Origin: Alistipes sp.
GTDB taxonomy: Bacteria; Bacteroidota; Bacteroidia; Bacteroidales; Rikenellaceae
Assembly (NCBI GenBank): GCA_017465605.1
Contig: JAFTVW010000035.1
Coordinates: 1-33,608 of the forward strand
Length of the DNA: 33,608 bases
Direction of reading: 5' to 3'
Shown: in pieces, positions 429 to 12,645 of the stretch
Numbering within the stretch: position 1 is the stretch's first letter
Layout of the letters: each line of letters begins with the position of its first letter
Translations under genes and position numbers: made by a program
Notes under the pieces: generated by a model
The model's input: only the letters and a program-made list of their open reading frames with translations
Databases searched by the model: none
Told to the model about the DNA's origin: nothing

Positions 429-3400
429 TTACTGCTTAATCATCTGAATCGTTGGAGCGGTGAATAGAGTCTTAACATCGGCAAACTCTGCCTTGTAATA
501 TACTCCGCCAATCGAGGTGTAAAGCTCAACCTTATCACCCTCCCAATTGAACTGATACTCCTTACGCAAGCGCAACTCATACTTACCAGCACTTGTTACG
601 GTAACAGAACCGATACGGCTACCATTCTTCACAAGCGAGAACGATACAAACTGGTTGGCAGGAACGGCTGTCTGGCTCGAAGCGTTATCACCATAAGTGA
701 TATCGCCAGCGATTGGCTTGTTCACAACGTTGAAAGTCTTTGAGTGGTAAACCACCTGCTCCTCGTTAGAGCTGATGATGATGTCACCTGCCGACACAGC
801 ATCTTTGGTCTTGAACTTCAACACGCGACGCTCGCCTGCCACCTTCTCGCCTGTCAATGCCTGAGCTGTACCGAAAGTCGCCTCGGTTGCACGGTCAGCG
901 TCAACACGATATACAAAGCGGCCATCGCTCAACTTCTCCAACTTCTTCTGACCGCCAACAGTAGCTGTATCAAAAGTGGCATTTGCGGCAAGCTCCAACA
1001 TATCGGCCTCGATATAAACCTCGAATACCTCACCGAATGGGTCAACCGAATTGTTGTCGTGAGCCTTGAAACTTGTCAAGTCGAATGCAATCTCAACCTC
1101 CTCGTTTGGGCCGTAAGCAAACTCGATGTTGTCAACCTCCTCCGCAGGGGTGTCAGCCGAAGCGGTCTCGCCAGCCGAAGGATTAACATCGTCGATATAG
1201 TTACCTGCAAACGATGTAGCACCCGCACCCTTAATCTGCGCACCGAAACGGAACGGACGATAGTTCGACAACTCAAATACTACCGAGCGGAACTGCTGGC
1301 CTGTGTAATTCGCGCTTGGATTGCTCACCGAAGGAGAGTTCTTCTGATTCGATGCCAAACGCACTGGCTCTGCACTCTTCGCTTTATTGGTCTTCAAGTA
1401 GAGGTTGAACATACCTGCTGATGATGCATCGGGATCCAACAACGTGAAACCGAAGATACGACCACCTGAGCCCCAATGCGTCTCATCGTATGCCTTGAAA
1501 TCAAGCTCCAAGTTTGCGTGCGATGTGTCGTGATCCAAATTCGATGAGTAGAGCAAGAACTCGTCACCAGCAATCAAATCGACAGCTGCATTGCCATTAC
1601 CCTCGTCCTTAACAGCAACCTCGAAGGCAACCTTTGCTCCACGCTTCTGCGGAATAAGTTTATAGAGGATATTCTCTGCCACAGCTGTTGAGCCTGACGG
1701 CACATACGAATAACTGCTCAATCCGTTGATTGTGATATACTTTCTAAGCTCCGAGAAGGTAACAACCTTTGTCAAACGCTCGAAGTGCTTAGCCTCCAAA
1801 GTTACATACTCAATATCGCTATCTGTCGCGTGCAAGATATTCTCGAAATATACACGCTGCACGCCCGGAGCATTTACAGTATATACATATTTGTAACCGA
1901 AATCCGAAGACTCTGGCACGCCGTCACCATTGGTATCAACCTCAAACTGCTCGCCGTAGCCCTCCTCGCCCAAGCGCACGATAGGCAACACCTGACCCGC
2001 AGCCGAGCGAATATCCATATCGTTTGCCGAGATAAGCACGTCCATTGGGAACAACTCCTCGGGGCAATCGTCGGGGATATTAAAGACAATCTCGATATTC
2101 TCGCGGCCTGTGGCGATATTACCATAGACCTCGGTACTTACCCAAGCGGGAGTAAACATCTGCTGCTTAACGGTCAAGACCTTGATTGTACGCTGCAAAC
2201 GGCCATACTTCACAAGCAGTGTTCCGCGCAAAATGTTCTTCTCGCTGGCATCGGGAAGCTCATTGAGAGCGAGGGTGATTGTACCCGTTGCCGACTTTGC
2301 ATCGGCTGCAATGTTGAAATTGAATGCCGAGCTACCATCGGTAGTTGGGTTAAGACGGTTGTTATAGGTAGAAGATACATCTTGATTCTCCTCAACCCAC
2401 GTTACCGAAACATCGGCAGCATTTATAGTTGAGCTACCCAAAGCATCAACCGAGAATGTAATCGAAGTCGTGGGGGTTGTTTTCACCTCAGCTGCATCGA
2501 ACACCACGCGAGTCTCATCGACCGAGAGTTTATAGTTGGCATCTTGCACCGACTTAACCTCGTCAGAGATAGACAACCAAATGTTGTTTGTAGCGGGAGC
2601 CTCCAAAGCCTCAGCAAAGGTTGCAACGCCATAGTCCAAATTACCAACGATATTAATCTCGTAGTGGTGATTACGACGTACCAAAACCTGACGGCCATCG
2701 GCATCGGTCAACGTTACACGATAGTATTTATCGGTCGCATCGGCAGTGCCGCTCACCACATTCTTACCACGAATAATTACCGATACGGGGTCGGTACCCG
2801 AGTTCTCAGTCTCGAAGATAAAGGTCTCGATAGCGGTATCAACATCGACGATATCGCTGAGCTTATCCATATTCTGAGGCAGGGTAACATTCTTCACATC
2901 TACCCACTTTGCCACGCTACCCGCTTGGAGTCCGTACTCAGGGGTATAATCGTCGCTCGTATAGGTTGGGAAGCCGTAGGTTGAGTGATAAGGTGCTACG
3001 GTACCGAATGCCTGTGAGTTGCAAACGGTGAAACCTGTCACCTGAAAATATGTTCCACCCCACAACTTACCAGCCGAATCAGCAGTCGCACCACTCGATG
3101 CAACGGTAACACGCGCTTGGTTGCGCAACATAACGATAGGCTTACCCTTACCGCCAGCCTCTACGGTGTTGGTTTGAGTAGTAATCCACTGCTTAACCTG
3201 CTCACCATTGACATAAGACGAAGGGACCTCCACGCGAGCCCAATAGATCATCATACCTGAGCTACCCTCCAAAATCGACAACAAGTCATCTTCTGTATGG
3301 CCTCGGAATGTAGCCTCGATATCGTCAAAATAGCTCATATTCTGGTTTGCCACGAAGTGCATAATGCGTGTATTATTGGGAATATTCGCATTGAATGTTC

Positions 3401-3689
3401 CGCTCAGAGCATTCTGCTGACCTGTGTACTCAGCCTGCTCGGCCGTGATAAACAAGCCCTCACCATTGAAGCAGAAGATGTGCAAAGTCTGAATACCTCG
3501 TCCATCGGGGTCAACGGCACGCGTCTTAACCTCGATTTCATCGGGAATTGTCACACCGAAGCTGATGCTTACCTCATCGCCACTTACCTCTGGTGTGATA
3601 GGCTGCTCGGGCAGGATATCCTCCTGATGGCAAGCCACCGAGGCAAAGCCGATGGCCAAGGCGAACATTATTTTAAGTAAACTCTTCAT
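429..3689 (-). CDS. Large fimbrial minor subunit (DUF4906-like lipoprotein)
   Basis: This is a 1086-residue exported lipoprotein and the last gene of the fimbrial operon. It has an N-terminal hydrophobic leader ending at Cys20 (SVAC, a weak lipobox), then a TRA motif with Arg57 that could be the processing site seen in fimbrillins. The N-terminal part resembles Mfa-type beta-sandwich subunits, with a helix-poor stretch carrying the signature IQTLHIFCFNGEG and later FQVTGFTVCNSQAFGTVAPY, features I associate with DUF4906 proteins of Bacteroidales fimbrial loci. The remainder (about residues 380-1086) is beta-rich and looks like several Ig-like modules. No von Willebrand A domain of the Mfa5 kind is visible. 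Its size and last position suggest a tip or surface-exposed accessory subunit. Start chosen at ATG 3689, which gives the leader directly. The family call is from recognition of the pattern, not a search. Confidence 0.75.
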   Translation of the reverse strand: MKSLLKIMFALAIGFASVACHQEDILPEQPITPEVSGDEVSISFGVTIPDEIEVKTRAVDPDGRGIQTLHIFCFNGEGLFITAEQAEYTGQQNALSGTFNANIPNNTRIMHFVANQNMSYFDDIEATFRGHTEDDLLSILEGSSGMMIYWARVEVPSSYVNGEQVKQWITTQTNTVEAGGKGKPIVMLRNQARVTVASSGATADSAGKLWGGTYFQVTGFTVCNSQAFGTVAPYHSTYGFPTYTSDDYTPEYGLQAGSVAKWVDVKNVTLPQNMDKLSDIVDVDTAIETFIFETENSGTDPVSVIIRGKNVVSGTADATDKYYRVTLTDADGRQVLVRRNHHYEINIVGNLDYGVATFAEALEAPATNNIWLSISDEVKSVQDANYKLSVDETRVVFDAAEVKTTPTTSITFSVDALGSSTINAADVSVTWVEENQDVSSTYNNRLNPTTDGSSAFNFNIAADAKSATGTITLALNELPDASEKNILRGTLLVKYGRLQRTIKVLTVKQQMFTPAWVSTEVYGNIATGRENIEIVFNIPDDCPEELFPMDVLISANDMDIRSAAGQVLPIVRLGEEGYGEQFEVDTNGDGVPESSDFGYKYVYTVNAPGVQRVYFENILHATDSDIEYVTLEAKHFERLTKVVTFSELRKYITINGLSSYSYVPSGSTAVAENILYKLIPQKRGAKVAFEVAVKDEGNGNAAVDLIAGDEFLLYSSNLDHDTSHANLELDFKAYDETHWGSGGRIFGFTLLDPDASSAGMFNLYLKTNKAKSAEPVRLASNQKNSPSVSNPSANYTGQQFRSVVFELSNYRPFRFGAQIKGAGATSFAGNYIDDVNPSAGETASADTPAEEVDNIEFAYGPNEEVEIAFDLTSFKAHDNNSVDPFGEVFEVYIEADMLELAANATFDTATVGGQKKLEKLSDGRFVYRVDADRATEATFGTAQALTGEKVAGERRVLKFKTKDAVSAGDIIISSNEEQVVYHSKTFNVVNKPIAGDITYGDNASSQTAVPANQFVSFSLVKNGSRIGSVTVTSAGKYELRLRKEYQFNWEGDKVELYTSIGGVYYKAEFADVKTLFTAPTIQMIKQ

Positions 3690-3727: not shown

Positions 3728-6715
3728 TTATCTATCGTTTACGTCGTATGAATCGCGGATACAACGGATAGCTGTACCAGTTGTTGTGTTCTGCGAGTTG
3801 GCAACAGGGCCACTTGCAGAGTAGTAGTAAGCTGCATTCAAGAGGTAGTCGATAGCTGCATTGGCATTGTCGTTTGAGCCGCTCTGCAAATCCAAGATGA
3901 TTCCAATCTCGGCAGCTGTTGGCAATCGCCAATCATCGAATACTCGGCCATCGGCTGCAACCTCCACATAGTTCATACAGTGCTCACGCGCAACAGCTGC
4001 GGTGGTGGCATTGTTACCGAAGGTGATATTACCTGCTCCTGAGTTGATGAATCCAAGTCGTGACGCAATCATAAACGAAGGCGAAACGATATTTGAGTTG
4101 TCAGTCGTAGTGGCAGTATATCCACTCTCGACATCAGTAGTCTCCACTCCATTAGCATCGACGATTCTGGGACGAGCCACAGTGTAACGGCTTGATGTTG
4201 CCGTAACGCGGACGTGATACATACGGGCATTACCATTCTCGGCGTTACTATGGCCAACTGTACTGCCTCCCCAATTATAGTAGTCGATATCGTAAGACCT
4301 CTGAGTCTGACTAAACTGGTTTGGTGCGCCATTTGTGCCGCGTGTAACATCGCGATTCACCTTTGAACGCCAGAAACCACTCGATGATGTATGATAATCG
4401 TGAACCACATTTCCATTGTTCATTCCATCATACGACACACCCACAATCGAACCACGCTTCTCCAAATATGTGGTAGGCTCGGTTGCTGTACCTTCAATGA
4501 AGTCATCACGATATGAGTACCAACCCACGATATTGGTGATATAAACCAACGGATACTGCTCTACTCGGAAGTCGGCTGTAAGGCCCTGCTCATTCTCAAC
4601 CTCGAACTCCAAGTAACGGATTGTATTGTAGTGGGTCTCCTCGCCACCAGCCTGCTGCTGAATCTGAGCAACTGCGGTATCGTAGGCAGCCTTCTTTGTG
4701 TTGTAATCGTTAATTGCCGTCTGATATGCAGTTAGCTGTGTCTGATACGTCTGATACTCTGCCGAACTCTGCCAAGTTGCAAGCTGCGTGTTATAGGCAG
4801 GAAGAGTAACATTGATGTATGTGTTGTATGCCGCCAAACGGTCACTGTATGTAGCAACGTCGCTATTGTACTGAGCAATCGCTGCGTCCCACTCACGCTG
4901 AGTCTCGGTGTCGGCAGTCCAAGCTGAATACTCCCAATCAGTCAAACCTCCCCAAGTCCAACTTCTTGTTCCTGTTTGCAATTCAAAAGTCACAGTGCCA
5001 TCAGATGCCGTAGTGTAACGATAGTTCGTGCGACTTGTACTATTCCAACCCGGCACAGTATCCTCTGGCTTATAATTATCGGGATTGGGAGCAACGGGAG
5101 TTGTTGGCTCGGCAACCACATCGGGAGCAGCTGGGCGACCAGCTGGCTCGGTTGGAGCTGTCACGTCGGGATATACGGGAGCCACCAAAGCCGCAATCGC
5201 AGCATCTATCTCCTCCTGAGTAGCGGGGATAATGGGCGAATTGATTGTAATCGGGCCATTAAGCACATCATTAGGAGCAGTAGCCGATATTGTCTGCTGA
5301 ACGGCATCGCTCAAACCTACGATTTGGCTATACTTGTTCTTATAATATGCCAAGTAACCATCACCACGATACTCCGCAGAGAAAGCCTCGTCGTCGATAT
5401 CCTTCAAGCGGATAGCTGTGATAGGCGATGAAGATGAGAACGAGAGCTGCTCGGCGTCCATATTGGCATTATAAATCTTCACAACCTCCTTGTTGAGCGT
5501 GAGGTATGCGGGCTTATTTGAGCTATCACCGATTGTGATATCAACATCGACCCAGGGAAGAGTAGAGAAATTGATTCCCTCCAACTCTACAACCGATGTA
5601 CGGTCGTCAGCTCCTGCTGTGTTGATAACGACATCTACCGTATAGCACTTATTGCGCTCGAACTTCATATCCTCGCTCAAAGGAATCTTATACCAGCTAT
5701 TGCAAGCCACAAACTCGTTGCCATCGCTCGCCTCGCCATTCTTATTCCACTTAACGGGGATATTCACAACCAAAGCAGTTGCATCTTGTGGGTCAGACTC
5801 GCCCCAAGCGTGAGCGTAAGCGTAGCCCACAACCTGAATCTTATGAATAGGAGCCTCGGCGGTGCTACCCGTCTGAGCTGTCCAGATATAAGTGTGCTCG
5901 TTGGGACCCAAATCGATGGTTGTAATCAACTCCTGCTCGGCCAATGCTACGGTGTTCTTTGGCAAAACGTAGCTCTTCACGGGCAACATATTGAAATAAT
6001 AGAGTGCGCTACCGTGTGTCGCACCATCGGCGAGGTGCTGGAAGAAGTTTACATCGTCACCCTGCGAGATGTTAACCACAATCTTTGCAGCAGCACGCTC
6101 CAACGAGGCCGAGAGCTTCATTGTCTCGCCATTGCCCGATGTGCTATTCACTACCTGACCATCGGCAGCACCCGCAACGGCCTGCATCACGAATGTTTCG
6201 GGAGGAGTTCCGCCACCGAGCTTAGTGCCTGTAACGTGCAACCAAGAGGTCTTGATACCGCCTGTCTCGGTCACCTCGTTCTGAACCCAATCCTCCAAAG
6301 CCGAGAGCGAGGTCAAAGCCGACGCATCAGCCGAAGAGATTGAGGCATTAGCAACCAAATAGAATGTATATTTCGCATTCTGCACAAACTTCGCATCGGC
6401 ACGCTTCACAGAGAGGGTCAATGTTCCCGCTCCATCTTCGGCAGCACCGTTATTGTTGCCTACTGCGCTACGCTCATAATGCACGACCGAGCCAGCACCA
6501 TCGCCATCGCTCTTTACAACGAAGACGTCGATATGCTTCACCGTACGCTCCACATTGGTATCCGCAGCACGAGTCGCCACCTGATCACCCAACAAGGTTG
6601 TGATAGTAATCTGACCATCACCAGTCTGAATGCTGTCAAGCTCGTCGGTGTGGGTACAAGCTCCCAACGCGATAGCCGCGCAACATATTAGAGTATAATA
6701 TATAAACCTTTTCAT
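3728..6715 (-). CDS. Probable fimbrial tip adhesin with PxxP/Tyr-heptad stalk and FISUMP-like C-terminus
   Basis: This 995-residue lipoprotein has a leader with lipobox LGAC (Cys20) and an Arg49-Ala50 site in VATRAAD matching fimbrillin maturation sites. Residues about 30-400 look like a fimbrillin-type N-terminal region, including LPWVDVDITI. Residues 513-555 hold 12 prolines, many in PxxP spacing. A tryptophan-rich linker follows (557-600). Then comes a predicted helix (602-688) with aromatic residues every seven positions: Tyr616, 623, 630; Tyr641, Trp648; Tyr657, 664, 671, 678. The C-terminus (about 915-995) contains HCMNYVEV, DWRLPTAAEI and IRCIRD, which resemble the FISUMP domain found in surface proteins of Bacteroidota and Fibrobacter. 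It lies 38 bases upstream of the 1086-aa gene. A tip adhesin role is inferred from size, position and head-stalk layout. Confidence 0.78.
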   Translation of the reverse strand: MKRFIYYTLICCAAIALGACTHTDELDSIQTGDGQITITTLLGDQVATRAADTNVERTVKHIDVFVVKSDGDGAGSVVHYERSAVGNNNGAAEDGAGTLTLSVKRADAKFVQNAKYTFYLVANASISSADASALTSLSALEDWVQNEVTETGGIKTSWLHVTGTKLGGGTPPETFVMQAVAGAADGQVVNSTSGNGETMKLSASLERAAAKIVVNISQGDDVNFFQHLADGATHGSALYYFNMLPVKSYVLPKNTVALAEQELITTIDLGPNEHTYIWTAQTGSTAEAPIHKIQVVGYAYAHAWGESDPQDATALVVNIPVKWNKNGEASDGNEFVACNSWYKIPLSEDMKFERNKCYTVDVVINTAGADDRTSVVELEGINFSTLPWVDVDITIGDSSNKPAYLTLNKEVVKIYNANMDAEQLSFSSSSPITAIRLKDIDDEAFSAEYRGDGYLAYYKNKYSQIVGLSDAVQQTISATAPNDVLNGPITINSPIIPATQEEIDAAIAALVAPVYPDVTAPTEPAGRPAAPDVVAEPTTPVAPNPDNYKPEDTVPGWNSTSRTNYRYTTASDGTVTFELQTGTRSWTWGGLTDWEYSAWTADTETQREWDAAIAQYNSDVATYSDRLAAYNTYINVTLPAYNTQLATWQSSAEYQTYQTQLTAYQTAINDYNTKKAAYDTAVAQIQQQAGGEETHYNTIRYLEFEVENEQGLTADFRVEQYPLVYITNIVGWYSYRDDFIEGTATEPTTYLEKRGSIVGVSYDGMNNGNVVHDYHTSSSGFWRSKVNRDVTRGTNGAPNQFSQTQRSYDIDYYNWGGSTVGHSNAENGNARMYHVRVTATSSRYTVARPRIVDANGVETTDVESGYTATTTDNSNIVSPSFMIASRLGFINSGAGNITFGNNATTAAVAREHCMNYVEVAADGRVFDDWRLPTAAEIGIILDLQSGSNDNANAAIDYLLNAAYYYSASGPVANSQNTTTGTAIRCIRDSYDVNDR

Positions 6716-6738: not shown

Positions 6739-8367
6739 TTATTCTTGCGTAATTTCGATATATGTGTGGTTATTACCGCTATCGGGCCAATAGGTCGATG
6801 TACTTGTTGCACCCATATTGATAAGCAGCAGCTTATAATCGGTATGCCACAACGAGTTGTGCGATATAGCCAACTTAAATTTCGAGTCCGTAGGATTCTG
6901 CTTCAATGGGGTAACGCGTACCTCATAGAATGTATCCTTATTTTCAGCAGCCACCGTAATTGGAGTCATTGTTGACTGTGCGGCATCGCTATATACGGGA
7001 GTTGCCTCCACTGTGACGGGGTTGGTCGATGTAACCTTGAAAACCTCAATGCGATACTCATCATTCTCGGCACTGAACAATACAGGCTTCCAAGTAGCAC
7101 CAATCGGAGCACTCATTCTCAAATAGCCCTTGAATGGAGTGGGGTTAGTAGCATCGTACCTAACCTTTGGTGCAACGGTTGCTGTCGAGCTCACGTCGGG
7201 AGCTGCGAGCAGATTGGTATTGATTGCGGGGGTAAAGCTACCTGTCAAATCCCACGATACATCTTCCCAATCCTTAACCGTATATGACACCTCGATACCG
7301 CCCTCGCCATTCACCAAAGCGCGCACCTGATAGTCGTGGTTACGAGCTATTGCAGGGAGAGCCACATAGCGGGTCTGCTCTGCGCCAGCACCAACCTGAT
7401 ACTTAATCTCGTAGTAGTAACCGTTACCGGCAGGAGCCGACTTTGCGTTATCTACAAATGTGCAGGCCTCCGAAGTCTCGGCAACGGTACAAGCACCTGC
7501 CAAAGTGTAATCCACAACATTTACGGTTGCGGCTGCGAGAATCTTATCAACCGCCTTACCGCCATCGGCAATGGCAAATGTGTGAGCCGAAGTTGCAGAG
7601 GCATAAGTTGGAGTGTTATTATTGAACCAAGCAGGCGAAGTATTCACCGTGAGCAACTGCTCCTTCGAGAGGCTCGACAAAAGCAAACCATTTTGGGGCA
7701 TCTTGCCGCTATGGAGTGTCAATGCAGTAACCTTCAAGTCGAAAGCCGAAGTCTTTGCAATCAAGAACTGGGTCTTAGCAACGGCGCGGAACACCGACAT
7801 ATCAACCAGCTTGTGAGGAGTTGCGCTATGCAAATCGGCCGAAGTAACCGACACATTCTCCCAATGCGAGATAGGCATCAACGCGGGCTCACCGGGTGTA
7901 CCCTCTGCCACAGAGCCCAAAATCGGAGTTGAGCCACCTGCAACATTCGCAAAGCGAGCATTAATCAACTGTGGATAGGTTGTTGCACCGTCCAACGTAA
8001 GAGGAGTTCCATCGGGATTGGTGATAGCACCAAACTTCGCAGGGTTAACAACTGCTACCAAGAGGTAATTAGCACCACCATCGCCGCACATTGGCAAATC
8101 AACGTGGATTGATACGTTTGTATATGTATTGCTAAACGTAGCGCGTCGCCAGCCAGCCGCATTGTCAGAGATCTGAGTTCCATTAATCTGGAAAGCCCAT
8201 ACCATAGCCTCCTCAATTTGGTCACCCTGCTGCTCCGAAGTAGAGCCTGCGCGAGACAAGTTCACCATCAAAGAGACGTCGGTCATCGAGTGACTCTCCT
8301 CCTTGACACAGCTTGCAAACATCATCGCCAAGCAAACTATCGATATTATATATATAAATCTTCTCAT
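6739..8367 (-). CDS. Fimbrial minor subunit (fimbrillin-like lipoprotein)
   Basis: This 542-residue protein has a leader with FASC (Cys20) and an Arg39-Ala40 site shortly after it. The N-terminal half shows the Mfa/FimA-type pattern: VSIHVDLP, NYLLVAVVNPAKF and, near residue 370, the YTVKDWEDVSWDL stretch like the closing strand of fimbrillin domains. The C-terminal third (about 385-542) is a second beta-rich domain with no motif I recognise. It lies 14 bases after the anchor gene and 23 bases before the 995-aa gene, so it is almost certainly cotranscribed. In P. gingivalis the genes after mfa2 encode accessory subunits (Mfa3-Mfa5) that ride on the shaft tip; a similar role is likely, but orthology cannot be shown here. 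Confidence 0.75.
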   Translation of the reverse strand: MRRFIYIISIVCLAMMFASCVKEESHSMTDVSLMVNLSRAGSTSEQQGDQIEEAMVWAFQINGTQISDNAAGWRRATFSNTYTNVSIHVDLPMCGDGGANYLLVAVVNPAKFGAITNPDGTPLTLDGATTYPQLINARFANVAGGSTPILGSVAEGTPGEPALMPISHWENVSVTSADLHSATPHKLVDMSVFRAVAKTQFLIAKTSAFDLKVTALTLHSGKMPQNGLLLSSLSKEQLLTVNTSPAWFNNNTPTYASATSAHTFAIADGGKAVDKILAAATVNVVDYTLAGACTVAETSEACTFVDNAKSAPAGNGYYYEIKYQVGAGAEQTRYVALPAIARNHDYQVRALVNGEGGIEVSYTVKDWEDVSWDLTGSFTPAINTNLLAAPDVSSTATVAPKVRYDATNPTPFKGYLRMSAPIGATWKPVLFSAENDEYRIEVFKVTSTNPVTVEATPVYSDAAQSTMTPITVAAENKDTFYEVRVTPLKQNPTDSKFKLAISHNSLWHTDYKLLLINMGATSTSTYWPDSGNNHTYIEITQE

Positions 8368-8381
8368 TGTCTCAATTCGTT

Positions 8382-9299
8382 TTAGCTAAAATCGGGAGTT
8401 ACGGGGACATTCAACCAATCGGGAATGGTGACAGTCACGCCCATACTCGTAAATTTCACAACAATAGGAATCAATACCTCCTGCTTTGTAACGTCAATCT
8501 GGGGATAGAGTGTCAAAAAATCCTTCAAAGCCAAAGTATTCAACACGTTGCCCGTTGACTTCTCCACCAACTCAAACTCCACGTCTGAGTCCTTCGAGTG
8601 ACGCATAATGTTGAAGTATGAGTCCAACACGCCACCGCTTTTAAGCGAGAAGGTAGGATTGTATGTAGTCTTATTACCATTAGCCGTATTGGTAAAGTCG
8701 GTCTGCGGAAGAAGATTCTTTACTCGAAGCTCCAATGCGTCGGGCTTCGCAGCCGCAGCTCTTGTCGAAGAGTTCTGACTTGCGCCATTCTCGAAATATC
8801 CCTCAACTTTATAAGATACCTTCAAGTGAGATGAGCGGAAAGGAACATCGTCCTCATACCAATCGTCCTTAGGCATTACAAATTCTAACTGACCCAAATA
8901 CAGCGAGTCATTACCCTCTATCGCGCCACCGCTATTCAAATTGGGGTGCTGCATCTGTATCTCGGCCATATTGGTCGCCGAGGTATTTGTAACCTCTGTT
9001 TTATTGAAGCCGTTACCTACGCCGACAACTCGATATTTGCCGGGGCCGAGGTTGAGCTTCGTTCCCTGAAATGCTTTCAGTTCGTTCTGCTCGATAAGTT
9101 TGGTCTGCACCAAACGGTCATCGTTATCAAAAACATACAGGTTTACACGCGTGATCTGCTCGGGAAATATATCCCAAGTAACATCGCCCGTATAGCTAAA
9201 GGTGAGTGTGCACCTCTCGCAATCATCGTAGTTCTCCTTGATGCAGCTCGCGAGCAGAACGACCGAGGCGAGCAGGTACAAGTATAGAAATCTTTTCAT
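8382..9299 (-). CDS. FimB/Mfa2-family fimbrial anchor lipoprotein
   Basis: The protein is about 305 residues from the chosen start. It has a strong lipoprotein leader, MKRFLYLYLLASVVLLASC, then the Mfa2/FimB signature with cysteines in YDDCERCTL and the strand RVNLYVFDNDD. Members of this family sit in the outer membrane, end the fimbria and set its length. Unlike the other lipoprotein subunits of the operon it has no Arg-Ala site soon after the lipid cysteine, which fits an anchor that is not proteolytically matured. Its C-terminus (VTIPDWLNVPVTPDF) closely resembles that of the preceding fimbrillin. In-frame ATGs also occur at 9323 and 9305; the ATG at 9299 is preferred because it begins the leader at MKRF, as in the other subunits. 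Confidence 0.85.
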   Translation of the reverse strand: MKRFLYLYLLASVVLLASCIKENYDDCERCTLTFSYTGDVTWDIFPEQITRVNLYVFDNDDRLVQTKLIEQNELKAFQGTKLNLGPGKYRVVGVGNGFNKTEVTNTSATNMAEIQMQHPNLNSGGAIEGNDSLYLGQLEFVMPKDDWYEDDVPFRSSHLKVSYKVEGYFENGASQNSSTRAAAAKPDALELRVKNLLPQTDFTNTANGNKTTYNPTFSLKSGGVLDSYFNIMRHSKDSDVEFELVEKSTGNVLNTLALKDFLTLYPQIDVTKQEVLIPIVVKFTSMGVTVTIPDWLNVPVTPDFS

Positions 9300-9355
9300 A
9301 CACATCTTAATTTTTGGGCGCATCGCGCCTGTTTGTTGAATTTGTTTTTCAAAGC

Positions 9356-9421: not shown

Positions 9422-10492
9422 TTACTCGAATACAGGAGTTACAGGAACAACAACCCAGTTAGCGATTGTTACGTTTACAGCTACGCAAAGGTTACCCATA
9501 TCTGAACGAATGTCGCTCTCGGTGAAGTCCATATTCAAGGTGTAAATCTCACCGGGGAGGAAGTTCTTCAAGATAGTCTTGCCATTCTCAACCATTGAGT
9601 TTGTTTCAGCATTTGCATAGTTAGCAGGGATTGCATAGTCAACAACTGTTACCAAACGATTCTCTGTACCAGCGGGAACTGTCCAACCATTACCCTTAAC
9701 TGTAACGTGCAACTCCAAATCGGGAGCACCAATAGTTGCATTCTCAGGCTTAGAAACATTCCAAGACCATATCTTGCCAGCACCGGCGTTTGCTGCGTTA
9801 GCATCGGGAGTAAGAACTACACCATTTGCGCCAAATGACTGAGTAAGGTTCGCAGCAAATACCAATGAGTTAAGAGTAAGCTCGCTGTACAATGTACCCA
9901 AATCAGTACACTTTACCTGACCAACCTCCAAACGAGCGTGGTTGGGAGTAACTGTAAGCGAAGCCTCGTACAAAGGATACTTGTGACCATCAACCTCGCA
10001 GAAAAGCTCCTTGCCATCAGCATCTGTTGAGTGGTGAGCAGCAGCGTGACCGAAAACAATAATCTCGCTCCACTCTACATCGGGAGTCTGAGCACGCCAC
10101 ATCTGGTGAGCAGCTGATAAAGTCGTGGGAGCATTGCTCTTTGTAATCTTATTTGCGGCTGCACCGTTTGCGATTGCAAATACCTCTGATACCTGCTGAG
10201 GAATACCGTGGAAAGTGTAAACACCACCTGACTCAGTTGCATCAGCAATAGTCAATGTAGTAAGAACCTGACCTGCACCATTCACGAAACCGAATACCAA
10301 ATCCTCGGCCTTTGTACAAGCTGCGCCAGATGCGGGAGCAGGAGTAGTTACGGCACGACCCGCGGGAAGTGCGTTGGCAATTGTGATAGACACACTCTTC
10401 TTAGAGGTCTCCAATACAGATGTACCCTCATCGTCCTTGCTGCAACCAACCACAGCTACGAGTGCCAATGCTGCAATAAAAAATCTTTTCAT
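9422..10492 (-). CDS. Major fimbrillin subunit (Mfa1/FimA-type)
   Basis: This 356-residue lipoprotein precursor has leader and lipobox VVGC (Cys17). Arg46-Ala47 in PAGRAVTT falls where P. gingivalis fimbrillins are cut by Arg-gingipain; I recall position 46/47 for FimA and 49/50 for Mfa1. Removal of the N-terminal strand frees the groove used for strand-exchange polymerisation. The mature part is a two-domain beta-sandwich type protein with NFLPGEIYTLNMDF and the closing strand VTIANWVVVPVTPVF. Its position right before the Mfa2-like anchor, its short length and the stem-loop after its stop codon mark it as the major shaft subunit. It lacks the large extra domains of the later genes. Subtype (FimA versus Mfa1) cannot be settled by eye. 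Confidence 0.82.
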   Translation of the reverse strand: MKRFFIAALALVAVVGCSKDDEGTSVLETSKKSVSITIANALPAGRAVTTPAPASGAACTKAEDLVFGFVNGAGQVLTTLTIADATESGGVYTFHGIPQQVSEVFAIANGAAANKITKSNAPTTLSAAHQMWRAQTPDVEWSEIIVFGHAAAHHSTDADGKELFCEVDGHKYPLYEASLTVTPNHARLEVGQVKCTDLGTLYSELTLNSLVFAANLTQSFGANGVVLTPDANAANAGAGKIWSWNVSKPENATIGAPDLELHVTVKGNGWTVPAGTENRLVTVVDYAIPANYANAETNSMVENGKTILKNFLPGEIYTLNMDFTESDIRSDMGNLCVAVNVTIANWVVVPVTPVFE

Positions 10493-10584: not shown

Positions 10585-12048
10585 CTACTCTAAGCTCTTT
10601 GCCAACTCCGAGAGGTTGTGCTTTGCATCTGCCGAGCCAGCTGTTGCGGCCTTCTGCCACATCTCACGGGCCTTGTCGTTGTTGCCAGCTTTCGCATAGG
10701 CGTTACCGGTAGCCAACTGTACGTTAACATTATTCTGATCGGCCTTGCTGAGTACTGCCAACGCTCCGTTCACATCGCCCTTGCCGAGCAGAACGCTTGC
10801 TGCATTGACAGCTGCTGCAACCTGCTCTGGGTAGGTCTTTGCGGCAACCTCCATAATGTGGTTGTAATCGGCCGAACCCTTAGCGTATGAACCAGCCACC
10901 TTATACATCTCGCCGAGAGAGAGTTTGCGAGGATCCTTGTCGATAAGTGCGCGGGCCTCTTCGAGGTTGAAGTTACGCACGTTATATACTATACGGTAGT
11001 CGTTGCGACGCAACTTTGGATACATCTCGCTCATCAAACGCTGGTAGATTGTTGCGGGAATCAACGCCTCCAAAGCATCGTCCTTCTGGTCGAGAGTGAG
11101 TTTCTTATCGTCGATTACGGCCAACACCTTATCACGATTGAGAAGTGACTGCTCTGCCTCAACCAACTCGCGCAAGCCCTTCCAATCCTCACCGCAACCT
11201 ACGGTCTCGATGTGTGAACGCTCGATGTCGGTCTTAGCTGCAACATAGTCGGCCAATGAGTTTGCACGATTCTGCGAGAGCGTCTTGTTGTAATGCTCAG
11301 GAGCCTCAGGTGATGCCCAACCCTCGATGCGGATAGAGGTGATGGTCAAATCGGTATCCTGCTCAACCTTCTCGATAGAGTTGATGATTGAAGCCAACTC
11401 CGACTTGTTGGTCTTATAATCCTCCAAAATATCGTACTTGTCAACCTTGAAGTTGATGTAAGCCGAATGAGACTCGTCACGCACCTTAACTGGCTCGGGT
11501 GCAGGCTCTACGAATGCCAACACATACTGAGGAATGTATGGGTCGTGAAGAATGCGCTGCAAGGGGCTGTCACCCAATGCCAACGGAGTGTTAGAGCAAC
11601 CGCAGCTACCCTCCTTGATAACGACGTTAGCACTCTTCATCCACTGCTCGAAAGCAAGCTCCGTAGAGTAGGGTACCGACTGCTTCTGACCCGCCTTGAA
11701 CTCGGCACGAGTAGCGATACGCTCGGCATAGGCTGGATTCTCGGTTACAGTCTGCTCGCCATTGCGAAGCCAATAGAGCCACGCGCGACGGCCCATAATC
11801 TCGATTGAAGGCATCTCAACCGACTTGTCGCCCTTTACGATTGCGGGTGTGAGAATCAAGGTCTCGTCGGCACCTACATTAAGGTTGCTGATATCGACAT
11901 TCATATCGACCTTCACCACACCGCTGTTGCGTGTCACGCTGAGATTCTTAACCTCGGCCTGACCCTCCATAATCTGCTGCGCCGACACCGAAAAAGTCAG
12001 CAAGGCAGCCGATACAACACTTATTGTATATAGAATTGTTCTTTTCAT
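10585..12048 (-). CDS. DUF3868 / OmpA-like / TPR envelope protein of fimbrial locus
   Basis: The protein has a signal peptide ending at SVSA-QQ, then a DUF3868-type N-terminal domain (about 25-190) with the cysteine motif GSCGCSNTPLALGD. An OmpA-like peptidoglycan-binding region follows (about 195-365), carrying IRIEGWASPEAPEHYNKTLS and QNRANSLADYV. The C-terminal TPR-like helices (about 370-487) include NVQLATGNAYAKAGNNDKA. Such proteins are encoded next to fimbrillins in Bacteroidales and probably tether or organise the fimbrial export site at the cell wall; that role is inferred. An in-frame TTG exists at 12057, but the ATG at 12048 begins the signal peptide (MKRTILYT) and lies 12 bases past the stop codon of the upstream gene, so it is preferred. 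Confidence 0.8.
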   Translation of the reverse strand: MKRTILYTISVVSAALLTFSVSAQQIMEGQAEVKNLSVTRNSGVVKVDMNVDISNLNVGADETLILTPAIVKGDKSVEMPSIEIMGRRAWLYWLRNGEQTVTENPAYAERIATRAEFKAGQKQSVPYSTELAFEQWMKSANVVIKEGSCGCSNTPLALGDSPLQRILHDPYIPQYVLAFVEPAPEPVKVRDESHSAYINFKVDKYDILEDYKTNKSELASIINSIEKVEQDTDLTITSIRIEGWASPEAPEHYNKTLSQNRANSLADYVAAKTDIERSHIETVGCGEDWKGLRELVEAEQSLLNRDKVLAVIDDKKLTLDQKDDALEALIPATIYQRLMSEMYPKLRRNDYRIVYNVRNFNLEEARALIDKDPRKLSLGEMYKVAGSYAKGSADYNHIMEVAAKTYPEQVAAAVNAASVLLGKGDVNGALAVLSKADQNNVNVQLATGNAYAKAGNNDKAREMWQKAATAGSADAKHNLSELAKSLE

Positions 12049-12060
12049 ATCGCACAAGAT

Positions 12061-12645
12061 TTAGAAGAGATATACAAGATTGATTGCAGCCTTTGTAGGG
12101 CCAATGTAGTGGTGATTGTCGTTGCCAATCTTCTCACCGCACTTAGGGCAGAAATACTTGTCATAAGCGGTGTAGGCATAACCCAAACCAATCTGCGCCT
12201 CCAAGTTCCAGTGTTTGCCAAGCATCCAAGCATAACCGTAGCCAATACCTACGCCCGCAAACCAACCTTCGAAGCGGTGGTCTTCGAGTTGCGAGAGATT
12301 TGTACCCAAGAAATCGGGTAACCCAGAGATGTTACCAACGTTGTATTGGCCTCCCCACAAATGAGCCGCTAAAAAGTGACCTCCAAATTTACGGCAAGTC
12401 CAATAACGAACCTCTGGCTGAACAAACCAATGCTTGAACTTCTTGTTCTCCGAGAACTGGAACGGATTCCAGTTACCCGACAAGTCAAATGTCCACTTCT
12501 CAGCCAATGCAGTCTCAACTCCGAGATTGATTGACGTGGTGGCATCGTAAAGCAAGTTGGTCTTTACAGCCCAATTCTGAGCATTCGACTCTTGGCTGAA
12601 TCCCAACGCCCATACACCTAATAAAATAAATAAGTATTTCTTCAT
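12061..12645 (-). CDS. DUF3575 outer-membrane protein, first gene of fimbrial operon
   Basis: This 194-residue protein has a signal peptide (cleavage near SNA-QN) and alternating beta strands ending in the aromatic terminal strand AAINLVYLF, typical of a small outer-membrane beta-barrel. The opening WAVKTNLLYDATTSINLGVE and the late segment YDKYFCPKCGEKI followed by HHYIGPTKAA match DUF3575 as I know it. The Cys-Pro-x-Cys-Gly pair lies just before the last strand, so it would be in a loop; it may form a disulfide rather than bind zinc. DUF3575 and DUF3868 genes commonly precede Mfa-type fimbrillins. It is the promoter-proximal gene, about 120 bases after the predicted transcription start. Confidence 0.83.
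   Translation of the reverse strand: MKKYLFILLGVWALGFSQESNAQNWAVKTNLLYDATTSINLGVETALAEKWTFDLSGNWNPFQFSENKKFKHWFVQPEVRYWTCRKFGGHFLAAHLWGGQYNVGNISGLPDFLGTNLSQLEDHRFEGWFAGVGIGYGYAWMLGKHWNLEAQIGLGYAYTAYDKYFCPKCGEKIGNDNHHYIGPTKAAINLVYLF

What the first reader, a model, noticed from the sequence alone, without database searches (positions are those of the whole stretch)
4651..5182. Possible polyproline/alpha-helix stalk in a Bacteroidales fimbrial adhesin, like antigen I/II
In the 995-aa subunit, residues 513-555 have prolines spaced three apart in several PxxP runs, which would line up on one face of a left-handed polyproline II helix. Residues 602-688 form a predicted helix with aromatics every seven residues. 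At 3.1 A per residue the first segment would be about 133 A long; at 1.5 A per residue the helix would be about 130 A, so the two match as an antiparallel hairpin. Streptococcal antigen I/II builds its stalk from such a helix pair, but there the alanine-rich helix precedes the proline-rich segment. I know of no report of this in Mfa-type fimbriae. Pro640 inside the helix is a caveat.
Basis: partly seen in the sequence, partly recalled or inferred. Interest (0 to 1): 0.8.

Follow-up and report, generated by a model that had tools for sequence, protein, structure and literature searches.

The report
Folded arm on bacterial pilus-tip adhesin
A gut bacterium's pilus-tip protein appears to carry an out-and-back arm, a proline-rich strand lying along a long helix, built on the same principle as a streptococcal tooth adhesin but in the opposite order and with no detectable common ancestry.

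Summary
The 995-aa protein is a FimD-type tip adhesin (NCBIfam NF052322, 381 bits), not an Mfa shaft subunit. Residues 495-693 are an insert in a tight turn of an Ig-like domain; 28 of 41 uninserted rows could be measured and have 3-10 residues there, so the insert must leave and return at one place. It runs: proline arm, beta-hairpin apex, long helix with aromatics every seven residues.

In 8 inserted proteins helix length follows proline-arm length, r=0.991, slope 2.02+-0.11; 3.1/1.5 A per residue predicts 2.07. Apex length is unrelated. Corrected for relatedness: r=0.98, slope 2.06+-0.17. AlphaFold2 is confident in both arms (pLDDT 90-97 and mostly 94-98).

This supports a polyproline/alpha hairpin, analogous to antigen I/II with the order reversed and no detectable homology. 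Corrections: the helix breaks at residues 650-651, so a jointed arm is likelier than a straight 130-A rod; Pro640 lies inside confident helix. Contacts were not seen (no coordinates); a second loop also covaries in length. The adhesive role of the apex is inferred.

The parts
3728..6715 (-). 995-aa FimD-type fimbrial tip adhesin (P0001); N-terminus holds a lipobox-like LGAC (reading as lipobox recalled)
5234..5512 (-). N-terminal half of the Ig-like base domain (res 402-494); last strand res 486-492
4637..5233 (-). the insert (res 495-693, 199 aa), placed in a turn that is 3-10 aa in the uninserted rows that could be measured
5189..5218 (-). short helix at the foot of the insert (res 500-509)
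   Evidence: H10-19
5066..5179 (-). outgoing proline arm, polyproline-II-like (res 513-550)
   Evidence: block pLDDT 90-96 and 93-97; neither helix nor strand in DSSP except 3-4 residues of helix near its end
5138..5140 (-). Gly526, Gly of the proline arm shared by 7 of 8 inserted proteins, candidate elbow
4967..5035 (-). apex beta-hairpin (res 561-583; strands 561-569, 575-583)
   Evidence: block pLDDT 93, 95, 86
4769..4909 (-). returning helix, upper part (res 603-649), includes Pro640
4763..4768 (-). helix break (Ser650-Ser651)
   Evidence: same place by eye in alignments
4646..4762 (-). returning helix, lower part (res 652-690)
   Evidence: 652-690; 652-687
4532..4636 (-). C-terminal half of the Ig-like base domain (res 694-728)
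429..3689 (-). 1086-aa fimbrial protein, next gene of the operon (FimE position by analogy with the P. gingivalis fim order)
   Evidence: synteny; no family hit
6739..8367 (-). 542-aa fimbrial protein (FimC position by analogy)
   Evidence: synteny; no family hit
8382..9323 (-). Mfa2/FimB-family anchor
   Evidence: PF08842 E=6.4e-36
9422..10492 (-). 356-aa lipoprotein-like protein, FimA position by analogy
   Evidence: relative in 5 of 9 loci (L045, L046, L047, L049, L053), some cut by the end of the locus

Best explanation
Residues 495-693 are an out-and-back arm grafted into a turn of an Ig-like domain of a FimD-type pilus-tip protein. The chain leaves the domain through a short helix, runs outward as a polyproline II strand of about 38 residues, makes a beta-hairpin at the far end, and returns as an alpha-helix of about 86 residues whose tyrosines, one every seven residues, pack on the prolines. 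The two arms are matched in physical length, so their residue numbers change in a ratio of about 2. The helix has a break at a shared place, and the proline arm a glycine about opposite it in 7 of 8 proteins, so the arm probably has an elbow: a lower segment of about 58 A and an upper one of about 70 A. Its likely job is to hold the beta-hairpin apex away from the pilus tip, with a reach that lineages tune by lengthening or shortening both arms together and can lose entirely. SHOWN here: insert position, lengths, heptads, length ratio, synteny, presence and absence. PREDICTED: fold. INFERRED: direct Pro-Tyr packing, elbow bend, display of an adhesive apex.
For: Insert lies between adjacent strands: relatives read e.g. 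GNITVNSDVPTNNTIRYF, 3-10 aa in 28 measurable rows, so both ends are together. Length ruler: A2 anchors P112->P144 and W208->H294, 8 proteins, r=0.991, slope 2.02 (95% CI 1.76-2.29), exact permutation 6 of 40320; independent contrasts r=0.979, slope 2.06+-0.17; five lineages slope 2.09+-0.15; apex uncorrelated with either arm (r=0.25, 0.19). Expected 3.1/1.5=2.07. AF2: proline-arm blocks 93, 96, 95, 90 with the base domain and 95, 97, 96, 93 insert-only, pTM 0.63, five models with mean pLDDT 84-90. Heptad aromatics and PxxP above shuffles over the 8 proteins. VIA rows place base-domain strands on both sides of the insert.
Against: No coordinates or PAE were available, so contacts between the arms were not seen. 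pTM is 0.50 and 0.63, and four of the five models average 74.6-82.3. Only 8 proteins, about five lineages. A crude pattern rule for arm ends gave r=0.46, as it cut L052's proline arm at a Pro-free gap and L048's helix at its break. In alignment A3 and three other MAFFT runs the W208 column was not all-aromatic, so the ratio rests on A2 or on ends drawn by hand. Another loop (res 785-813) also covaries with both arms (r 0.96-0.97). PxxP is not significant in the window alone. Elbow matching is post hoc with n=7. Foldseek found no PDB match at E<=0.001.
Confidence: 0.75

Rival explanations
1. Helical hairpin: the two helices (603-649, 652-690) fold back on each other at the 650-651 break and the proline arm only decorates the outside or wraps around them.
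For: Helix break at the same place in the 8 proteins, by eye; the insert model does not superpose on long solved helices across the break (147-194: 7.0 A over 48 residues; 114-197: 14.6 A over 83) while 160-199 does (1.1 A over 40).
Against: The two helices are unequal and their difference changes sign (h1-h2 = 10, -3, -3, -12, -6, -6, -12, -13). The sum follows the proline arm (r=0.991) better than either half (0.94 each).
Confidence: 0.15
2. Flexible proline linker plus an independent coiled-coil helix (for example a dimer or partner-binding helix); no intramolecular pairing.
For: Proline-rich spacers are common on surface proteins (general knowledge); heptad aromatics also suit coiled coils; several rows of the insert fold search are coiled-coil proteins (Rad50, cohesin).
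Against: Proline-arm pLDDT 93-97, unlike a free linker (general knowledge); length coupling at the rise ratio, which a free linker has no reason to show.
Confidence: 0.08
3. Common ancestry with streptococcal antigen I/II: a permuted descendant acquired by transfer.
For: Weak echoes only: Strep_SA_rep E=0.92 and Adhesin_P1_N E=3.2, each in 1 of 7 scanned members; 6e36 antigen I/II E=6.9.
Against: None is significant; the order is reversed. Gram-positive genomes were not searched for intermediates; the searches in the window's family, order and phylum showed none.
Confidence: 0.02

Closest known systems
Streptococcal antigen I/II stalk (SpaP A3VP1, PDB 3iox)
   Same: Long alpha-helix paired with a PPII helix, prolines against aromatics, holding an apical domain away from the base; 155 A stalk (passages seen in PMC3707005, PMC4974636, PMC3178794).
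   Different: There helix first, then V domain, then PPII, in a wall-anchored Gram-positive protein. Here PPII first, small beta apex, helix last; an internal insert in an Ig-like domain of a Gram-negative pilus-tip protein; helix broken once. No significant sequence match.
FimD of Bacteroidota type V (FimA-type) fimbriae
   Same: Equivalog match over cut-off, 381 bits; FimA/B/C/D/E-like gene order.
   Different: The FimD model has 664 positions; 27 of the 28 rows with a 3-10 aa turn are 741-823 aa long and one is a cut 549, against 905-1077 for the inserted proteins.
P. gingivalis Mfa5 (vWF domain inserted in an Ig-like domain)
   Same: A tip protein of a type V pilus with a functional module inserted in an Ig-like domain, resembling Gram-positive adhesins without sequence relation (passages seen in PMC7835359).
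   Different: The inserted module is a vWF domain, not a PPII/alpha arm.
Avian pancreatic polypeptide fold and designed PP-alpha miniproteins
   Same: [quoted passage not shown] that PPII comes first, as here, and the PP-alpha design are recalled).
   Different: About 36 residues in all (recalled) and a free peptide; here a 38-residue proline arm and an 86-residue helix inside another domain.

Membership tests
FimD tip adhesin (NF052322) | Score over the curated equivalog cut-off (170 bits) | tested here: met
   381 bits; also 5 of 5 relatives given (of 9 loci held), 388-428 bits
FimD tip adhesin (NF052322) | Operon with Mfa2/FimB-type anchor and neighbouring tip proteins | tested here: met
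   Order 542-995-1086 in 9 of 9 loci, and the Mfa2-family gene before it in 8 of 9 (L052's contig ends first)
FimD tip adhesin (NF052322) | Located in the pilus tip complex | not testable with these tools
   needs microscopy; a passage of PMC12785474 says no study has determined the exact place of FimCDE
Antigen I/II family | A-V-P order (helix, head, PPII) | tested here: not met
   order is proline arm, apex, helix
Antigen I/II family | A-repeat or other AgI/II sequence profile over cut-off | tested here: not met
   Strep_SA_rep 10.1 bits against cut-off 26; Adhesin_P1_N 8.5 against 27.1; 1 of 7 members each
Antigen I/II family | Antiparallel PPII/alpha stalk | tested here: inconclusive
   supported by length ratio and pLDDT; contacts not seen
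Antigen I/II family | Structural match to 3iox | tested here: inconclusive
   not among the rows listed; sequential aligners would miss a reversed order
Mfa-type major fimbrial subunit | Mfa_like_1 (PF13149) or Mfa1-family profile over cut-off | tested here: not met
   no such hit for this protein; PF13149 in the own genome hits another contig only; one relative, L050, matches Mfa1 family at 35 bits, far below its cut-off of 130

The most novel reading that the evidence does not exclude
A natural, reversed-order PPII-then-alpha jointed arm that arose independently of antigen I/II and is used as a length-tunable, dispensable boom on type V pilus tips; and PPII-then-aromatic-heptad-helix hairpins may be a wider, unrecognised motif in Bacteroidota (M56 peptidase tails).
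Probability: 0.5. Interest if true: 0.75.

Novelty: new variant of a known kind. Interest (0 to 1): 0.62.

Why it matters
It would be an independent invention of the antigen I/II stalk principle in Gram-negative pili, with the order reversed, and evolution would have supplied a series of rulers (proline arms of 19-40 residues against helices of 47-90 by hand-drawn ends) from which the rise ratio of PPII to alpha can be read off sequence alone. It gives a simple test, arm-length ratio about 2, for finding such hairpins elsewhere, and points to the beta-hairpin apex as the place to look for what these gut pili bind.

Tried and rejected
Homology to antigen I/II: phmmer of the whole protein (nothing at E<=10), of the insert (one match, an oxidase at E=0.27), profile of 8 proteins (best occludin E=0.037, AgI/II 6e36 E=6.9), Pfam. 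Rejected as homology. Absence of AgI/II from the listed fold-search rows says little, since the order is reversed, only the best 50 are listed and VIA only re-ranks Foldseek's list.

Rule-based arm ends gave r=0.46 and were dropped in favour of alignment anchors; both are reported. In A3 and three other MAFFT runs only the hinge column Y256 was available, which measures the lower helix alone (r=0.94, slope 0.77).

Tandem-repeat origin of the helix by DNA duplication: one weak 22-bp array (score 37) only. Wider search for the insert: 393 genomes of the order and 395 of the phylum, drawn evenly from larger groups, gave no full-length insert besides the window's own; the other matches were parts of uninserted relatives, a repetitive short frame (L088), M56 peptidases, or TPR-like and other unrelated proteins. 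A first genome-contig scan with the single protein found nothing. Plasmid records: one weak match outside the insert.

Whether anyone has described this: paper searches listed no title or abstract start that reports a PPII/alpha stalk in Bacteroidota fimbriae; most subscription papers are not held and I saw passages of six papers only, so this is not proof.

Full report
What is there. The ORF 3728-6715 on the minus strand encodes 995 aa. It matches the NCBIfam equivalog FimD_tip_adhes (NF052322) with 381 bits against a cut-off of 170, so it is a FimD-type accessory or tip protein of a type V pilus, not an Mfa shaft subunit. The gene lies between a 542-aa and a 1086-aa gene, with an Mfa2/FimB-family anchor before them (PF08842). 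The order 542-995-1086 is kept in 9 of 9 related loci, and the Mfa2-family gene precedes it in 8 of 9; in L052 the contig ends first. The order resembles fimA-B-C-D-E; that comparison is from general knowledge and passages of PMC12785474 and PMC7835359.

Relatives with the insert. The genus search gave matches in 7 of 180 genomes; the family search 44 of 268, of which 7 cover the whole model and the rest mostly the shared C-flank; the order search 6 of 393 and the phylum search 9 of 395, in both of which only the window itself shows the full insert. The genome-contig scan gave 9 loci: 7 inserted, 2 not (L051, L053); 6 are titled Alistipes, 2 Bacteroidales, 1 Rikenellaceae, and 8 of the 9 titles name the colon, cecum or rectum of cattle, buffalo, sheep, goat or deer. 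With the window this makes 8 inserted proteins. On a quick tree of the flanks (35 rows) the 8 and the two uninserted ones form one group of 10 (SH-aLRT 92, below the program's 95 mark); the label needs 3 changes, e.g. one gain and two losses, or three gains. The window's nearest relative, L051 (57% identity over 739 columns), lacks the insert: the arm is dispensable.

Anatomy. Proline arm res 513-550, apex 551-599 with a beta-hairpin (561-569, 575-583), helix arm about 600-690. Pro-Pro spacing of 3 is enriched over the 8 proteins (25 against 15.6, p=0.0005) though not in the window alone (p=0.08). Aromatics at spacing 7 are strongly enriched (42 against 10.3; none of 1000 shuffles).

The length test. 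With ends set by alignment columns (A2: invariant P112 and P144; all-aromatic W208 and invariant H294) the pairs (proline arm, helix) are window 32/86, L045 36/89, L046 36/89, L047 25/64, L048 21/58, L049 15/48, L050 14/46, L052 23/65. r=0.991; slope 2.02+-0.11, CI 1.76-2.29; 6 of 40320 permutations reach r; apex lengths are unrelated (r=0.25 and 0.19). Hand-drawn ends give r=0.984, slope 2.04+-0.15 and contrasts r=0.967, slope 1.96+-0.21. Independent contrasts with the A2 ends give r=0.979, slope 2.06+-0.17; five lineages give 2.09+-0.15. The ratio of rises, 3.1/1.5, is 2.07. The confidence interval does not separate PPII from a beta strand (about 2.2-2.3); proline content and spacing point to PPII.

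Controls and results against. A crude pattern rule gave r=0.46. The W208 column is all-aromatic only in A2; A3 and three other MAFFT runs lack it. Of 290 pairs of length-variable segments that do not both lie in the insert, 1 reaches r>=0.95 and none 0.99; that one is the proline arm with loop 785-813 (0.964). Under contrasts arm-helix is the highest of 253 pairs (0.979), but 785-813 with helix (0.968), 97-110 with 849-867 (-0.960) and 785-813 with the proline arm (0.956) come close. So correlation alone is not proof; the slope and the models carry as much weight.

Models. With the base domain (res 402-728, 10 sequences): mean pLDDT 84.8, pTM 0.50, the other four models 74.6-82.3; proline-arm blocks 93, 96, 95, 90; helices 603-649 and 652-687 at 94-98, falling to 85 and 61 at the foot. 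Insert alone (res 491-699, 8 sequences): mean 89.8, pTM 0.63, five models 84-90; proline-arm blocks 95, 97, 96, 93; helices 603-649 and 652-690 at 96-98, falling to 83 in the last ten residues. The proline arm is mostly neither helix nor strand in DSSP. A free proline linker would not be expected to reach such confidence (general knowledge). Pro640 is inside helix 603-649. Coordinates and PAE were not available.

The elbow. The helix breaks at Ser650-Ser651; the 8 proteins have Ser, Asn, Asp or Pro at this place by eye. VIA rows for the insert model: residues 160-199 fit a solved helix at 1.1 A over 40 residues (8ppl_I4), but 147-194 fits SAS-6 at 7.0 A over 48 and 114-197 fits 9cq3_d at 14.6 A over 83, which suggests, if those targets are straight, that the model bends at the break. 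In 7 of 8 proteins the proline arm has a Gly in the pattern [AEDS]G[RKFM]; L048 does not. Taking it as a joint: inner arm with lower helix r=0.93, outer arm with upper helix r=0.96, crossed pairs 0.77 and 0.91; jointly, the upper helix depends on the outer arm (2.16+-0.39) and the lower helix on the inner one (1.71+-1.01; weak). This is post hoc.

What it works like. Antigen I/II pairs a helix with a PPII helix into a 155-A stalk that carries an apical domain; proline side chains meet aromatics (passages in PMC3707005, PMC4974636, PMC3178794). The present arm would work in the same way. It is not a family member: order reversed, profiles far below cut-off. A hairpin of poly-Pro helix and alpha-helix is also the fold of avian pancreatic polypeptide (passage in PMC10125317; that its order is the one seen here is recalled). 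Mfa5 offers a precedent for a tip protein of this pilus class that carries a module in an Ig-like domain and resembles Gram-positive adhesins without sequence relation (passages in PMC7835359).

Function. That the apex meets a ligand is inference from position and from the adhesive role of FimCDE in P. gingivalis (PMC12785474 passages). Nothing here tests it.

Checking.

Noticed in passing
L095, L097, L101, L102, L104-L132 (C-termini; e.g. L104:1-1842:+): BlaR1-type M56 peptidases (PF05569 over cut-off in 3 of 3 scanned, L104, L114, L123) of one genus of the window's class but another family (flavobacterial is my guess) carry a C-terminal tail with a PxxP-rich stretch followed by a stretch with Phe/Tyr every seven residues, the same order as here. 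44 of 121 genomes matched, some only by short or broken frames; 32 of 33 sequences met a simple count (>=9 Pro in 35, >=4 aromatic pairs at spacing 7), after dropping L103, an unrelated protein; L097 and L102 come from one genome. Possibly a second, unrelated PPII/alpha hairpin. Arm lengths were not tested.
   Followed up: partly
L094:934-2964:-: An M56 peptidase (PF05569) from a more distant genome of the phylum has a Tyr-heptad stretch first and PPxxP-like repeats after it, i.e. the antigen I/II order.
   Followed up: no
window 4277-4363 (res 785-813 of the 995-aa protein): A loop of the C-terminal part whose length also covaries with both arms of the insert (r 0.96-0.97); unexplained, maybe chance or a contact.
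   Followed up: no
L051:2700-5105:+: The window protein's nearest relative on the flank tree, at the syntenic place, lacks the whole insert (2 residues by the count), showing clean loss or gain of the arm.
   Followed up: yes
window 10585-12645: Genes upstream in the same direction: a DUF3868/OmpA protein with weak TPR matches and a DUF3575 protein, perhaps outer-membrane partners of the fimbrial genes (role inferred).
   Followed up: no
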